Origin: Chloroflexota bacterium
GTDB taxonomy: Bacteria; Chloroflexota; Anaerolineae; Anaerolineales; Anaerolineaceae
DNA length: 64,000 nucleotides
Reading direction: 5' to 3'
Assembly (NCBI GenBank): GCA_029548365.1
Contig: JAKPNN010000003.1
Coordinates: forward strand, 62,001-126,000
How positions within the stretch are numbered: the first letter of the stretch is position 1; every line of letters begins with the position of its first letter. The translations under genes were made by a program, and so were the position numbers. The notes under the pieces were generated by a model, which was given only the letters and a program-made list of their open reading frames with translations, made no database searches and was not told the DNA's origin. Positions 9,458 through 56,913 of the stretch are shown piece after piece.

Positions 9458-9810
9458 AAAAAAAGCACTTGGTCGGTCAGGCTCACCGACATCCTCTCCC
9501 TTTCGGGGAAATGGGGCCTGCTTCTCCACCTCAAGTGCTTCACCGCCTGGTAGGACTGCCAACTTCCACATCTCTTTTGCCCACGAGGGGGTGTAGACGG
9601 CAGAATCTCTACTTCAGGCGGTTTATAAATGACTTCTGTCTGAACGGGGAGAATCAGGATCACCCGGTTGGTATGAGCCGCATTTATTCACTTCAGAAGT
9701 CATCATTGTCCTGGCCGGTCCACCAGTCCCGGCGTCTTCCTTGACTGGCCATTACTGAATTCAGTACTGGACTCAGTGCGTGAGCGGTGGCAAATTCCTC
9801 ACCTCAGGAC
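9458..9810 (-). ncRNA. Predicted multi-hairpin RNA with four stacked modules (sRNA-B)
   Basis: On the minus strand four adjacent modules each close with a different outer stem: 9708-9810 (GTCCTG/CAGGAC), 9629-9703 (ATGACTTCTG/CAGAAGTCAT), 9542-9622 (ACCGCCTG/CAGGCGGT) and 9463-9540 (AAGCACTTG/CAAGTGCTT). In each module the 5' arm of the outer stem runs into TGAGGTG or TGAAGT, then a short inner hairpin with a purine-rich loop and GC. Outer stems differ in sequence but all pair. The last stem is followed by seven Ts. A promoter-like element lies just upstream. The opening resembles sRNA-A. No known family recognised. Confidence 0.55.
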
Positions 9811-29831: not shown

Positions 29832-29860
29832 TTGACGAAATAAGCCTAATACGGTATTCT
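29832..29860 (+). promoter_or_regulatory. Promoter of the copper operon
   Basis: -35 TTGACG (29832-29837), 17-bp spacer, -10 TATTCT (29855-29860), 50 bp upstream of csoR. Confidence 0.7.
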
Positions 29861-29878: not shown

Positions 29879-29894
29879 CCCCCATGGGGGGGGG
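29879..29894 (+). promoter_or_regulatory. Putative CsoR operator
   Basis: Inverted repeat CCCCCATGGGGG inside a C-run/G-run (29879-29894), 18 bp past the -10. CsoR sites are G/C-tract pseudopalindromes overlapping the promoter of their own operon, so position and composition fit. Not verified. Confidence 0.5.
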
Positions 29895-29909: not shown

Positions 29910-30212
29910 ATGGCACACGATCACAGCGAAAACATCCAGCGCTTAAAAATTATCGAAGGCCACATTCGCGGCATCCAGCGTATGCTGGAAAATGACCAGT
30001 ATTGCATTGATATCATTCGTCAGATCCAGGCTGTTGGCGCCGCACTGAACAAAGTCAGCGTCAGCTTGCTCGACGGACACCTCAACACCTGCCTGCTGAA
30101 TGCCATCCACAGTGATGACCCCGTGGAACAAAAACGCATGCTGAGTGAAATCTCTGAAGTATTCGAAACATCCAACAAAATCAAACCATCTAAAGGAGCA
30201 TCATTAAAATGA
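29910..30212 (+). CDS. csoR: CsoR-type copper-sensing repressor
   Basis: 100-aa all-helical DUF156 regulator. The Cu(I)-binding Cys-His-Cys triad is present: Cys in Gln-Tyr-Cys-Ile-Asp-Ile, then Gly-His-Leu-Asn-Thr-Cys. An arginine-rich helix (Gly-His-Ile-Arg-Gly-Ile-Gln-Arg) forms the DNA-binding surface. In known members Cu(I) binding releases DNA and induces the operon. First gene of csoR-copZ-copA-rhodanese; its stop overlaps the copZ start (ATGA). A His-rich start (Ala-His-Asp-His) could add metal affinity. AAGAGG precedes the ATG. Confidence 0.93.
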   Translation: MAHDHSENIQRLKIIEGHIRGIQRMLENDQYCIDIIRQIQAVGAALNKVSVSLLDGHLNTCLLNAIHSDDPVEQKRMLSEISEVFETSNKIKPSKGASLK

Positions 30213-30415
30213 AATCCGTAACCTATTTAGCCCCAAATATTTCCTGCAAACACTGCACCCACACCATTGCCATGGAATTGATGGCTATTGAAGGCGTTTC
30301 CAAAGTGGATGCTGATGTTCAAACCCGGCAAGTCACGATCAATTTTGACGACCCGGCGACTGAACAGCAGCTCAAAGATACCCTGGCAGAGATCAACTAT
30401 CCCGTTGTCGAGTAA
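30209..30415 (+). CDS. copZ: CopZ-like copper chaperone
   Basis: 68-aa heavy-metal-associated domain with a ferredoxin-like fold and the metal site Cys-Lys-His-Cys near residues 13-16. It would carry Cu(I) in the cytosol to the ATPase encoded next. Its ATG overlaps the csoR stop, and its stop is two bases before the copA start, so all three are translationally coupled. The usual Met-X-Cys lead-in is Ile-Ser-Cys here. Confidence 0.92.
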
Positions 30416-30419
30416 AACC

Positions 30420-32849
30420 ATGCCTGATCAAAAGCATCTCACCCTGCCTATCCTGGGAATGACCTGCGCCAACTGCGTGGCCTCAGTTGAACGCAACTTG
30501 AAAAGGGTTGATGGAGTTGAAGCAGCCAATGTCAACCTGGCCTCTGAGCGCGCTGCAGTCACCTACGATCCGGACAAAGCCAATCTGGACGATTTAATCA
30601 AACGGGTTCAGGGCGCTGGCTATCAGGTTGCTATCGGTGAAGCTTCGTTGGGAATCAAAAACCTCACTGACGCTTCCGACGTTCTCCGCCTGGAAAAAGC
30701 CCTCAACGCCCAGGAAGGCGTTATTGAAGCACAGGTTAGCCTGGCTACCGAAAGAGCGTTGATAAAATACATCCCGACGGTGATCAGCCAGAATGAGTTA
30801 CGGCAGTTGATCAGGTCATCGGGTTTTGACCTGCTGGAAACCGATCTGCCACTGGAAGACGCAGAAGCCAGTGCACGCAAAGAAGACATCGCCCAGCAAA
30901 AACGTTTGCTGTGGTTTGGTCTGATCTTCACGGTGCCGCTGTTTATCCTCTCGATGAGCCGTGATTTCGGGCTATTGCCCATGTCCTTCGCCCATGCCCC
31001 ATGGATGAATTACCTCTTCTGGGCTTTAGCGACTCCGGTTCAGTTCTATGTGGGCTGGCAATACTTTGCCAACGGCTTTAAATCACTGCGCAATGGCTCA
31101 GCCAACATGGACGTCCTGGTGGCTTTGGGCTCATCAACAGCTTACTTCTACTCCATTTTCATTACCCTCGGCTTCATCCCCGGGCACGTATTTTTTGAAA
31201 CCTCCGCTGTGATCATCACCCTGGTTAAATTGGGCAAGTTCCTGGAAGCGAAAGCAAAAGGCGGCGCCAGCGACGCCATCCGCAAGTTGATGGACCTGCG
31301 TCCGCGCACAGCCTACGTGGTACGCGACGGCATCGAGGTGGAAGTGACCATCGACGAGGTGGTCGTCGGCGACCTGGTGCTGGTTCATCCCGGCGAACAG
31401 ATCCCGGTAGACGGCGTGGTCGTGGATGGGCGCTCCAGCGTCGATGAATCGATGCTGACCGGCGAATCCCTCCCTGTGGAAAAAACGCCTGGCGAGCCAT
31501 TAATTGGCGGCACGATCAATAAAATGGGATTATTAAAATTTGAAGCCACAAAAATCGGCAAAGAGACTGTATTAGCGCAGATTATCAAACTGGTTGAAGA
31601 AGCCCAATCCAGCAAAGCGCCAATCCAGAACCTGGCGGATAAGATCTCTGCCATCTTTGTGCCGGCTGTCATCGTTATTGCTGCAATCACTTTTCTGGTA
31701 TGGTATTTTCTCATTCCGCTTAGCCCGACCACAGAAGTAAGCCTGTTCACCCGTGCGTTGATAAATACAGTAGCCGTGCTGGTCATCGCTTGCCCGTGTG
31801 CCATGGGCCTGGCCACACCCACCGCGGTCATGGTGGGCACGGGTAAGGGCGCTGAGATGGGCATCCTGATCAAGAAAAGCGAAAGCCTTGAGCGCGCCGG
31901 GCAAATCACCACTGTGGTCCTTGACAAAACCGGCACCATCACTCGCGGTCAACCTGCAGTCACCCGGGTGACCCTGATTGAATTTGCTGGCAGCGAAGAT
32001 GACATGCTTCGGCTGGTTGCTTCCGTTGAAAAAAGAAGCGAACACCCATTGGGTGAAGCCATCACAGCAGAAGCCAATGCCAGAGGGCTGGCGCTTAGTG
32101 AGCCTTTAGGCTTTTCTGCTGTCGCCGGACATGGCGTGCAAGCAGAAGTTGACGGGCACAAGGTCCTTGTTGGCAACCGCCGCCTGATGAGAAACCAGGG
32201 TATCGAGATCGAAAGCGCCGAAGACGATATCCGCGAACTTGAGGAGGACGGAAACACCGCCCTTCTCGTTTCCCTCGATGGGCGCTTGTCGGCTGTGATT
32301 GGCGTTGCTGATACGATTAAGGAGGGGTCTCAAGCAGCAATTGACGTACTGCATGCGATGGGCTTGCAGGTCGCCATGGTCACCGGCGACAATCTTCGCA
32401 CAGCCCACGCCATTGCCCGGCAGATCAACGTAGATACCGTACTGGCCGAGGTTTTGCCTGGTGACAAAGCTGCCGAGATTAAAAAGCTCCAGGCAGAAGG
32501 CCATACAGTTGCCATGGTTGGCGATGGCATTAACGACGCGCCAGCATTGGCTCAGGCAGATATTGGCATCGCCATCGGCACCGGCACCGATATTGCCATG
32601 GCCTCCGCCCCGGTTGTGCTGATCAGCGGCGATCTTCGCGCAGTGCCCAAAACCATTGCCCTGTCGCGAAAGACACTCAGAACGATCAAGCAGAACTTGT
32701 TCTGGGCTTTCTTTTACAACATCATCCTAATCCCCGTGGCGGCGGCTGGTTTGCTCAACCCTATGCTGGCAGCGGGCGCCATGTCGTTCAGCAGTATTTT
32801 TGTGGTCACCAACAGCCTCCGGCTGAAGCGCTTTCGCTTTGACGTCTGA
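30420..32849 (+). CDS. copA: Cu(I)-exporting P1B-type ATPase
   Basis: 809-aa copper exporter. Two N-terminal HMA-like domains are present: the first has Gly-Met-Thr-Cys-Ala-Asn-Cys (about 13-19); the second, about 75-140, has lost its cysteines. The membrane part carries Cys-Pro-Cys (Ala-Cys-Pro-Cys-Ala-Met) in TM6, the Cu(I) site. Also seen are the TGES-type actuator loop (Leu-Thr-Gly-Glu-Ser), phosphorylation site Asp-Lys-Thr-Gly-Thr-Ile-Thr, His-Pro dipeptide (Ser-Glu-His-Pro-Leu-Gly) and hinge Gly-Asp-Gly-Ile-Asn-Asp-Ala-Pro. The start at 30420 is chosen because an upstream extension would overlap copZ. The cysteine-free second HMA domain is unusual but known from other bacteria. Confidence 0.95.
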
Positions 32850-32884
32850 ACCAGTCTGCTCATCAAAAAATCAAAGGATGCGCA

Positions 32885-33346
32885 ATGCACAGAAAAAGGA
32901 AAAATAACGCGTTCTTCCCGTTGATCCTCTTGGGGTTAGTGCTGGTCATAACCGTCGGACTGGCATTCCTTGCGCAAAAAATACGCCAGGACAAGATCGC
33001 CAATCCGGGCGAGTACAGCACGCAGGATCAGATTCCACGGGTGACCGTCGCTGAAGCCGATCAAGCTGCCCAAAATGGCGCTGCTGTTATAGTCGATACC
33101 CGATCAGCATCACTATTTGATTTACAGCACATCAACGGCGCGATTAATATCCCGCTGGATGAGGTTGAAGCCCGGATAAACGAGCTGGACCCTGACACCT
33201 GGTACCTGACGTACTGTACTTGACCGGCTGAAAACACAAGCGCCCGTGCGGCGCTCATCATGCATCAAAACGGTGTTTCCAGGGTCAACCCGATTCTCGG
33301 CGGCTTTGAAGCCTGGCTGGACGCGGGTCTACCCGTGACTCCTTGA
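32885..33346 (+). CDS. Selenocysteine-containing, membrane-anchored rhodanese (UGA at 33221-33223 read as Sec)
   Basis: 153 aa if UGA is decoded as selenocysteine at residue 113. One N-terminal transmembrane helix (about 10-30) places a rhodanese domain (about 50-150) outside the cytoplasm. Before the UGA are the N-terminal rhodanese features: Val-Asp-Thr-Arg and His-Ile-Asn-Gly-Ala-Ile-Asn-Ile-Pro. Tyr-Cys-Thr comes just before the UGA. After it, in frame, come Pro-Ala-Glu-Asn-Thr-Ser-Ala-Arg-Ala-Ala and Leu-Gly-Gly-Phe-Glu-Ala-Trp-Leu-Asp-Ala-Gly-Leu-Pro-Val. Aligned with Cys-X4-Arg/Thr-Ser active loops, the UGA is the catalytic cysteine. Last gene of the copper operon, 35 bp after copA, with AAGGATG before the ATG. 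If UGA is not recoded the product is a 112-aa fragment without an active site. Confidence 0.85.
33239..33255 (+). promoter_or_regulatory. bSECIS-like hairpin downstream of the UGA
   Basis: Perfect 6-bp stem AGCGCC/GGCGCT with 5-nt loop CGTGC. Twenty-one bases separate the UGA from the loop, and the loop has G then T at its second and third positions. Bacterial SECIS elements lie within the coding region just after UGA and expose such a G/U for SelB. Strong support for recoding. Confidence 0.75.
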
Positions 33347-33401: not shown

Positions 33402-33436
33402 AAACAAAAAGAGGCTGCCTTTTACAGACAGCCTCT
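33402..33436 (-). terminator. Intrinsic terminator after lipoprotein gene
   Basis: Minus strand AGAGGCTG/CAGCCTCT stem with about 11-nt loop, then TTTTTG. It may also stop the converging copper operon, though the plus strand has no long T-run. Confidence 0.8.
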
Positions 33437-56819: not shown

Positions 56820-56913
56820 GGGAGTGGTCAGGTCCCGGTGGGCCTCCCGGTCTTCAAAATCGGTGTCGGGTCGCTTGGCGAGCCGTGGTGGGTTCGACTC
56901 CCATCCATTCCCG
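56820..56913 (+). tRNA. selC: tRNA-Sec (anticodon TCA)
   Basis: 94-nt tRNA with selenocysteine-specific features. An 8-bp acceptor stem (GGGAGTGG/CCATTCCC, one G-T pair) and 5-bp T-stem stack to the bacterial 8+5 layout. The D-stem has 6 bp (AGGTCC/GGGCCT) with a 4-nt D-loop, a long variable arm is present, and the anticodon loop CTTCAAA carries TCA at 56854-56856. Discriminator base is G. CCA is not encoded. It reads UGA when bound by SelB; the UGA in the copper-operon rhodanese is a likely target. selA, selB and selD are not in the window. Confidence 0.96.

What the first reader, a model, noticed from the sequence alone, without database searches (positions are those of the whole stretch)
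32885..33346. Selenocysteine at the catalytic position of a membrane-anchored rhodanese in a copper operon
The rhodanese frame is broken by a single UGA (33221-33223) right after Tyr-Cys-Thr, and continues in frame with the rest of a rhodanese domain to a normal stop at 33346. The UGA aligns to the catalytic cysteine of the rhodanese active loop. A perfect 6-bp hairpin with a G/U loop starts 15 bases after the UGA (21 bases to the loop), as bacterial SECIS elements require. The same window encodes a tRNA-Sec. Sec-containing rhodanese-like proteins have been noted in metagenomes. A Sec form that is anchored outside the membrane and sits last in a csoR-copZ-copA operon is, to my knowledge, not described. 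A selenolate next to a copper exporter could serve in selenium/sulfur transfer, in copper-thiol repair, or as a Cu(I) ligand.
Basis: partly seen in the sequence, partly recalled or inferred. Interest (0 to 1): 0.92.

Follow-up and report, generated by a model that had tools for sequence, protein, structure and literature searches.

The report
Copper-operon selenium rhodanese
A bacterial copper-export operon ends with a gene whose internal stop codon is almost certainly read as the selenium amino acid selenocysteine, giving a membrane-anchored, rhodanese-type protein with a Cys-x-Sec active loop; this ties selenium to copper defence in a way I did not find described.

Summary
A 153-codon frame (32885-33346) carries one UGA (33221-33223) in the rhodanese active loop, Y-C-T-U-P-A-E. 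Sec insertion is strongly supported: the genome has selA, selB, selD and tRNA-Sec; the 49 best places in 298 genomes of the class (own included) all carry UGA; 87 of 91 distinct homologues keep the five inner hairpin pairs (4.1 expected from synonymous shuffles), with compensatory changes; a covariance model finds 18 of 18 held-out Sec loci and, below E 0.01, none of 15 non-Sec loci. The hairpin fits the published bacterial SECIS model. In all 16 genomes of the genus the gene begins directly after copA; in the 14 next-closest copA loci, from other genera, it is not found. Whether Sec takes the classical catalytic Cys place or sits two residues after it is unsettled: the loop is two residues longer than usual and alignments disagree. 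Cys-x-Sec rhodaneses are a known predicted kind (NCBIfam NF041203), but this protein scores 59 bits against a cut-off of 115, and 0 of 301 phylum genomes pass. New here: copper-operon membership, membrane anchoring, double-Sec (U-x-U) relatives. The chemistry is inferred: most likely Cys/Sec redox or persulfide exchange outside the membrane under copper stress, less likely Cu(I) binding.

The parts
29832..29860 (+). sigma-70-like promoter of the operon (TTGACG-17-TATTCT)
   Evidence: such matches are not above chance in the region, but the place fits
29879..29894 (+). CsoR-like operator, CCCCC-AT-GGGGGGGGG inverted repeat
   Evidence: the same kind of repeat upstream of csoR in 10 of 13 genus loci; that CsoR binds such repeats is recalled
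29910..30212 (+). csoR-type copper-sensing repressor (PF02583; Cys, His and Cys present)
30209..30415 (+). copZ-type Cu(I) chaperone (HMA domain, CKHC)
30420..32849 (+). copA, P1B copper-exporting ATPase with CPC motif
   Evidence: TIGR01511 609 bits against cut-off 397
32873..32878 (+). ribosome-binding site AAAGGA before the rhodanese gene
   Evidence: by reading
32885..33346 (+). Sec-containing membrane-anchored rhodanese, 153 aa, motif YCTUPAE
32912..32977 (+). N-terminal transmembrane segment after MHRKRK (predicted N-in/C-out)
   Evidence: hydropathy; lipobox forms among homologues
33221..33223 (+). Sec-UGA, residue 113
33239..33255 (+). bacterial SECIS hairpin, 6 bp and 5-nt loop CGUGC
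33410..33436 (.). terminator-like inverted repeat between the rhodanese gene and the convergent lipoprotein gene
   Evidence: scored on the - strand only
56820..56913 (+). tRNA-Sec (UCA anticodon)

Best explanation
The gene is a genuine selenoprotein gene and the fourth gene of a copper-controlled operon. Shown by comparison: UGA-113 is decoded as Sec through a conserved bacterial SECIS hairpin, and the gene follows csoR-copZ-copA throughout the genus. Inferred: when Cu(I) releases CsoR from the operator, CopZ and CopA move Cu(I) out and the rhodanese is made with them. It is held by one N-terminal helix with its domain outside the membrane. The active loop is two residues longer than in ordinary relatives and holds Cys-111 and Sec-113; either can be the nucleophile and the other its partner, so the pair can cycle between thiol/selenol and selenenylsulfide or carry sulfur as a persulfide/perselenide. 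The likeliest role is redox or persulfide exchange that repairs or protects thiols on the outer face while Cu(I) is exported. My probabilities: Sec insertion 0.97; copper-regulated operon 0.85; domain outside 0.8; Sec rather than Cys-111 at the classical nucleophile place 0.5; redox or persulfide chemistry rather than metal binding 0.5.
For: selB, selD and selA over curated cut-offs in the genome; tRNA-Sec. The first 49 ranked places among 298 class genomes, and the first 70 among 147 family genomes, own place included, all carry a TGA inside. Inner stem kept in 87 of 91 against 4.1 expected. Cells with both-side changes: 19 against 3.1 shuffled, 0 of 500 shuffles as high; pairs with such changes 4 against 2.1, 7 of 500 as high. 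Held-out search: 18 of 18 Sec loci (17 places) found, 0 of 15 non-Sec loci below E 0.01, one at E 0.28. Published bSECIS constraints met. Operon: the rhodanese begins right after copA in 16 of 16 genus genomes, three of them cut by the contig end; csoR and copZ in view in 15 (the contig of G321 starts inside copA). CsoR-like box in 10 of 13. Outside location: helix plus positive N-terminus; 8 homologues have a lipobox instead.
Against: Catalytic place unsettled: 3tp9, 1yt8 domain 4 and 3o3w align their Cys with Cys-111, as does GlpE in the single-sequence alignment. No structure could be predicted. No direct proof of Sec. Most homologues outside the genus (69 of 79 loci; 50 of the 58 with 3 kb held on both sides) have no P1B ATPase within 3 kb on the same strand, so copper is not the family's general context. 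The invariant Glu-116 in the loop is unlike the cationic thiosulfate-binding loops that I recall, so classical sulfurtransferase activity is doubtful. 10 of 55 Sec-rhodanese genomes in the class sample lack selB over the cut-off (by hand, from best E-values), though 9 of those 10 have selA and 8 have a clear tRNA-Sec of 61.8 bits or more; one of the 10, G251, is a single-contig genome.
Confidence: 0.8

Rival explanations
1. Same selenoprotein, but a Cu(I)-binding protein rather than an enzyme: Cys-111 and Sec-113 form a thiolate/selenolate site that receives exported Cu(I) or buffers it outside.
For: Conserved place directly after copA in the genus. Ten further loci lie near P1B ATPases of SPC, CPC or unassigned motif. 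The invariant C/U-x-U pair stands beside an invariant Glu. The review PMC13188914 notes that Sec may serve as a metal ligand in other heavy-metal selenoproteins (passage).
Against: The whole rhodanese domain is kept, which a simple ligand would not need. Most relatives are not near metal-pump genes.
Confidence: 0.25
2. Same selenoprotein, acting in sulfur or selenium supply (perselenide carrier for SelD or general sulfur transfer).
For: Rhodanese domain; the genome holds selD.
Against: Predicted outside the membrane, away from SelD; placed with copper genes; acidic active loop.
Confidence: 0.1
3. The UGA is an ordinary stop and the rest is a decayed tail or a read error; the functional product is 112 aa.
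For: A table 11 gene call ends there. Two relatives, G417 and G430, carry an additional TAG inside, so broken copies may exist.
Against: Residues after the UGA are among the most conserved in the family (E116, S119, A120, A123, G139 invariant in 63 sequences); UGA and hairpin recur in 85 genomes.
Confidence: 0.02
4. The organism reads UGA as a sense codon throughout (Trp or Gly).
For: None found.
Against: The same gene ends with TGA at 33344-33346, as do 26 of the 93 homologues counted. tRNA-Sec with UCA anticodon and the selA/B/D set are present. Three UGA-less relatives have Cys, not Trp or Gly, at this place.
Confidence: 0.01

Closest known systems
NCBIfam NF041203 rhodanese_LYCAU, 'rhodanese-related (seleno)protein' (review: 'Rhodanese-like form 3', motif CxU)
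   Same: Same domain, same Cys-x-Sec motif; best-named match of the window protein and of the 11 relatives scanned
   Different: 59 bits here against a cut-off of 115; relatives scanned 61.8 to 101.4; best place in the phylum 107.2; 0 of 301 genomes of the phylum over the cut-off. Copper linkage is not mentioned in the passages I read
GlpE / PspE single-domain thiosulfate sulfurtransferases
   Same: Rhodanese domain; Sec aligns to GlpE's Cys in the profile alignment, Cys-111 in the single-sequence one
   Different: No Sec, active loop two residues shorter; scores far below the curated cut-offs; no anchor in GlpE (recalled)
BH2092 (3o3w, 3nhv), solved rhodanese of unknown role
   Same: Loop Y-C-W-G-P-A-C aligns without a gap in the loop to Y-C-T-U-P-A-E, so the loop length agrees
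   Different: Its Cys falls on Cys-111; Gly stands where Sec is; no Sec
YCACP (Cys-x-Cys) lipoprotein-like rhodaneses of the same class (L089, L098, L102)
   Same: Cys at both positions of the motif, lipobox-like N-terminus
   Different: No UGA and no SECIS hairpin; loop PRAEA, PHAEA or PRSEA rather than PxExxSA
TsoB, rhodanese/DsbD fusion-like selenoprotein NF045694
   Same: Rhodanese selenoprotein, by name a fusion with a membrane protein
   Different: Motif UxxxxU and a much longer profile (572 positions); 21 bits against 805
csoR-copZ-copA copper operon of other bacteria
   Same: Same three genes in the same order with CsoR-like box
   Different: Fourth gene is the Sec rhodanese in this genus; 0 of the 14 next-closest copA loci, from other genera, have it in the flank held

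Membership tests
Bacterial selenoprotein gene | in-frame UGA conserved among homologues, coding continues beyond it | tested here: met
Bacterial selenoprotein gene | selA, selB, selC, selD in the genome | tested here: met
Bacterial selenoprotein gene | bSECIS: loop 3-9 nt, upper stem 4-16 bp, G in first two loop places, 16-37 nt from UGA to loop, MFE <= -7.5 | tested here: met
   constraints from PMC13188914 Fig 2 legend: loop 5, stem 6, G at place 2, 21 nt, -10.8 kcal/mol; conserved
Bacterial selenoprotein gene | Sec found in the protein | not testable with these tools
   needs 75Se or mass spectrometry
Rhodanese (PF00581) | domain match over gathering score | tested here: met
   49.5 bits against 22.2
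Rhodanese (PF00581) | Sec at the classical catalytic Cys place | tested here: inconclusive
   for Sec-113: 1yt8 domain 2, both 6mxv domains, GlpE and one hhalign direction; for Cys-111: 3tp9, 1yt8 domain 4, 3o3w, GlpE single sequence and the other hhalign direction
Rhodanese (PF00581) | thiosulfate:cyanide sulfurtransferase activity | not testable with these tools
   enzyme assay needed
NF041203 rhodanese_LYCAU | score over the curated cut-off of 115 bits | tested here: not met
   59 bits; relatives 61.8-101.4; 0 of 301 phylum genomes, best 107.2
NF041203 rhodanese_LYCAU | Cys-x-Sec motif | tested here: met
   YCTU
CsoR-regulated copper operon | csoR-copZ-copA order, CPC-type ATPase, CsoR-like box | tested here: met
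CsoR-regulated copper operon | copper induction of the rhodanese gene | not testable with these tools
   RNA measurement needed

The most novel reading that the evidence does not exclude
Copper defence in this genus includes a dedicated, copper-induced selenoenzyme on the outer face of the membrane, part of a large family in this phylum whose active loop is Cys-x-Sec and, in several lineages, Sec-x-Sec served by one SECIS. Selenium would then be used to handle copper-damaged thiols or Cu(I) itself outside the cell.
Probability: 0.45. Interest if true: 0.75.

Novelty: new variant of a known kind. Interest (0 to 1): 0.62.

Why it matters
Selenols are easily oxidised and bind Cu(I) tightly (recalled), so a selenoprotein made with a copper pump is unexpected. 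One kept in a copper-export operon across a whole genus makes a testable claim that Sec chemistry is useful during copper stress. A table 11 gene call cuts this protein at the UGA, so many relatives in this phylum are probably annotated as short fragments (inference; no annotation was checked). The U-x-U forms raise the question of how one SECIS serves two UGA codons six bases apart.

Tried and rejected
Considered and rejected: decayed gene or read error, and genome-wide UGA recoding (see rivals). Selenium supply to SelD: kept as a weak rival. Using selB co-occurrence as proof: uninformative, because 239 of 298 class genomes have selB over the cut-off anyway, against 45 of 55 genomes with a TGA-bearing match at E 2.9e-14 or better (by hand, taking best E-values, since the match list is capped). 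Rfam finds no family at the hairpin. Thermodynamic stability of the single hairpin is not above shuffles. A plasmid search listed rhodanese, ArsR-rhodanese and MBL-fold features among the 30 of 56 records shown; PHROGs gave nothing; the one genome-contig scan gave 7 distant rhodaneses.

The same recheck showed that G315, at first set aside as not judgeable, has the rhodanese start after copA (by reading).

The rough chance rate for a P1B ATPase within 3 kb on the same strand is about 1 percent (my estimate from about 8 matches per genome), against 10 of 79 non-genus loci. Loci are not independent, so I give it little weight.

Rows dropped before the SECIS count: of 101 loci examined, 8 were left out: five without UGA (L089, L096, L097, L098, L102) and three with UGA in a loop that my filter did not accept (L099, L100, L101). 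L100 looks like a true member (VCTUPSE) that the filter missed. Alignment A1 used 63 of the 81 sequences that remained after redundancy reduction; A2 used 79 of 90 distinct hairpin stretches.

Full report
What is there. Window 32885-33346 codes for a 153-residue protein if the single in-frame UGA at 33221-33223 is read. The protein starts MHRKRK, has one strongly hydrophobic segment, and then a rhodanese domain (PF00581, residues 54-146) whose active loop reads Y-C-T-U-P-A-E-N-T-S-A. It ends in an ordinary TGA, so the same codon is a stop 41 codons later. Directly upstream on the same strand lie csoR, copZ and copA; copA ends 35 bases before the rhodanese start, and an AAAGGA ribosome-binding site precedes the ATG. 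Between a promoter-like site and csoR lies CCCCC-AT-GGGGGGGGG (29879-29894), the kind of inverted repeat that CsoR repressors bind (that link is recalled). It recurs in 10 of 13 loci of the genus for which csoR was in view; in the three others the csoR start was probably called too early (L134, L136) or lies at the repeat itself (L139). A terminator-like repeat follows at 33410-33436, scored on the - strand.

Is it a selenoprotein? The genome (70.7% complete) carries selB (357 bits against 242), selD (335 against 125, itself with one inner TGA) and selA (524 against 268), all over curated cut-offs, and tRNA-Sec in the window. In 298 genomes of the class the first 49 ranked places, own included, all hold at least one TGA inside the match; in 147 genomes of the family the first 70 do (class, family and genus are the tool's unnamed groups). 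Two of the 70, G417 and G430, also hold a TAG and may be broken. Residues beyond the UGA are among the most conserved of all: E116, S119, A120, A123 and G139 are invariant in 63 aligned sequences. This excludes a read error and a decayed tail.

The hairpin. A six-pair stem with loop CGUGC starts 15 bases after the UGA, 21 bases to the loop. It meets the constraints of the bacterial SECIS model as quoted in PMC13188914 (legend of Fig 2). Across 91 distinct homologous sequences (93 loci, 85 genomes) the five inner pairs are all kept in 87, whereas redrawing synonymous codons with local codon use predicts 4.1; the outermost pair is kept in only 48 of 91. Compensatory changes occur at four pairs (7 of 500 shuffles as high); 19 cells change on both sides against 3.1 in shuffles, 0 of 500 as high. 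A covariance model built on 79 sequences finds 18 of 18 Sec loci that it had not seen (17 separate places) and the window's own place as its only hit in the window; in 15 loci with non-Sec rhodaneses it finds nothing below E 0.01 and one match at 0.28. Three Cys-x-Cys relatives of the same class, with TGC where the UGA would be, lack the stem (L089, L098, L102). Against: this one hairpin is no more stable than shuffles of itself, and Rfam has no family for it.

Which residue is catalytic? Unsettled. Compared with ordinary C-x-x-G-N-R-S relatives of the same phylum, the loop is two residues longer (14 sequences). Read column by column, the family profile puts Sec-113 at the Cys of 1yt8 domain 2, both domains of 6mxv, and GlpE, but Cys-111 at the Cys of 3tp9, 1yt8 domain 4 and 3o3w. 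The single sequence puts Cys-111 at GlpE's Cys. hhalign against the 14 ordinary relatives gives Cys-111 in one direction and Sec-113 in the other. 3o3w has the same loop length (Y-C-W-G-P-A-C) and its Cys falls on Cys-111. Which Cys is catalytic in these chains is recalled from the usual motif. Position 111 is Cys or Sec and 113 is Sec in every row of A1 (with the sequences).

The copper link. In the window's genus (16 genomes) the rhodanese begins directly after copA in 16 of 16: whole in 13, cut by the contig end in G313 (UGA seen), G314 (56 residues matched) and G315 (23 residues, by reading). UGA is seen in 14 of the 14 that reach that far. csoR and copZ are in view upstream in 15; the contig of G321 starts inside copA. 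The 14 next-closest copA loci, all from other genera of the family, keep copZ (14 of 14) and csoR (11 of 14; the flank of L268 is short) but have no such rhodanese in the flank held (about 1.5 kb; 375 bases in L256). The closest Sec rhodaneses from a sister genus sit elsewhere, and the tree (110 columns, many forks unresolved) mixes them with the copper-operon copies. So a widespread surface Sec rhodanese seems to have joined the copper operon in this genus or its immediate ancestor. Elsewhere, 10 of 79 loci lie within 3 kb of a P1B ATPase on the same strand (8 of the 58 with 3 kb held on both sides; SPC, CPC or unassigned motif), for example directly after it in L049, L060 and L064. Others follow oligopeptidase-like, transporter-like, ArsR-like or other genes (names by eye). 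Copper is therefore the context of this genus, not of the family.

Location. The charged N-terminus followed by one helix suggests N-in/C-out. By a simple hydropathy and motif rule, 70 of 93 homologues have such a helix, 11 have a zinc-ribbon-like N-terminus before a helix, 8 have a lipobox, and 4 have none. Lipoprotein forms support an outside location.

What it works like, and what it is. It works like a Cys-x-Sec thiol/selenol protein on a rhodanese frame. It is a selenoprotein and a rhodanese by the tests made. It is not a member of NF041203 by that family's own cut-off (59 bits against 115; eleven relatives 61.8 to 101.4; 0 of 301 phylum genomes over it, best place 107.2), although that is the nearest named family and shares the Cys-x-Sec motif.

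Literature. The review PMC13188914 (section 7 part 1 of 3 read; other passages) lists five rhodanese selenoprotein forms: UxxS, UxxG, CxU (NF041203), UxxG and TsoB with UxxxxU. PMC9312934 (passages) lists the CxU form too. PMC2398784 and PMC1088965 (passages) report Sec sulfurtransferases in marine metagenomes. Searches for rhodanese with selenocysteine, selenoprotein and SECIS, with copper, CsoR and P-type ATPase, with selenoprotein and Chloroflexi, with CxU, for selenocysteine with CopZ, for rhodanese with Anaerolineae (none), rhodanese with copA and selenoprotein with Chloroflexota gave listings; beyond the papers named here I saw listings only. I saw no account of a Sec rhodanese in a copper operon nor of a U-x-U rhodanese. 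The paper perhaps likeliest to hold one (Haft and Tolstoy 2025, PMC12013261) was not held, so the absence is weak. PMC1794560, PMC2147054 and PMC12013277 were searched for terms only.

Mechanism. Shown by comparison: Sec coding, SECIS conservation, operon structure. Inferred: copper induction, outside location, selenenylsulfide or perselenide chemistry, and which of Cys-111 and Sec-113 attacks first. The invariant Glu in the loop makes classical thiosulfate chemistry less likely (recalled knowledge of cationic loops). I favour Cys/Sec redox or persulfide exchange protecting surface thiols during Cu(I) export (0.5), with Cu(I) binding as the main rival (0.25).

Noticed in passing
L080, L082, L084, L088, L139, L207-L212: Relatives with two UGA codons in the loop (mostly Y-U-x-U-P), so probably Sec-x-Sec with one SECIS; the first UGA would lie 27 nt from the hairpin loop. 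They fall in more than one place of the tree, one inside the window's genus (G316, loop I-U-T-U-P). Not among the rhodanese forms that I saw listed in PMC13188914.
   Followed up: partly
L046 and L048: Identical DNA over about 4.6 kb around the Sec rhodanese in genomes of two genera of one family in the same order (G130, G027), and about 1 kb shared with L047 (G223): recent horizontal transfer likely.
   Followed up: partly
L130 (G000:C22:49421-50347): The genome's own selD carries one in-frame TGA within a near full-length match, so selenophosphate synthetase is probably a selenoprotein too.
   Followed up: no
L089, L098, L102: Lipoprotein-like rhodaneses with YCACP: Cys versions of the motif, without SECIS, in genomes (G116, G135, G153) that also hold Sec versions.
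   Followed up: partly
L060, L064, L067, L083, L085, L087 and others: Sec rhodaneses with an N-terminal zinc-ribbon-like CxxC...CxxC before the helix; these six lie near P1B ATPases of SPC or CPC type.
   Followed up: no
L084: Double-Sec rhodanese after a gene that looks like an arsenite methyltransferase (by eye) and upstream of a CPC-type ATPase.
   Followed up: no
window 9542-9622 (- strand): Rfam match to the skipping-rope RNA, 50.6 bits.
   Followed up: no
L251 (G312), L253 (G314), L264 (G378) copA: copA matches listed with one inner TAG or TAA; not examined.
   Followed up: no
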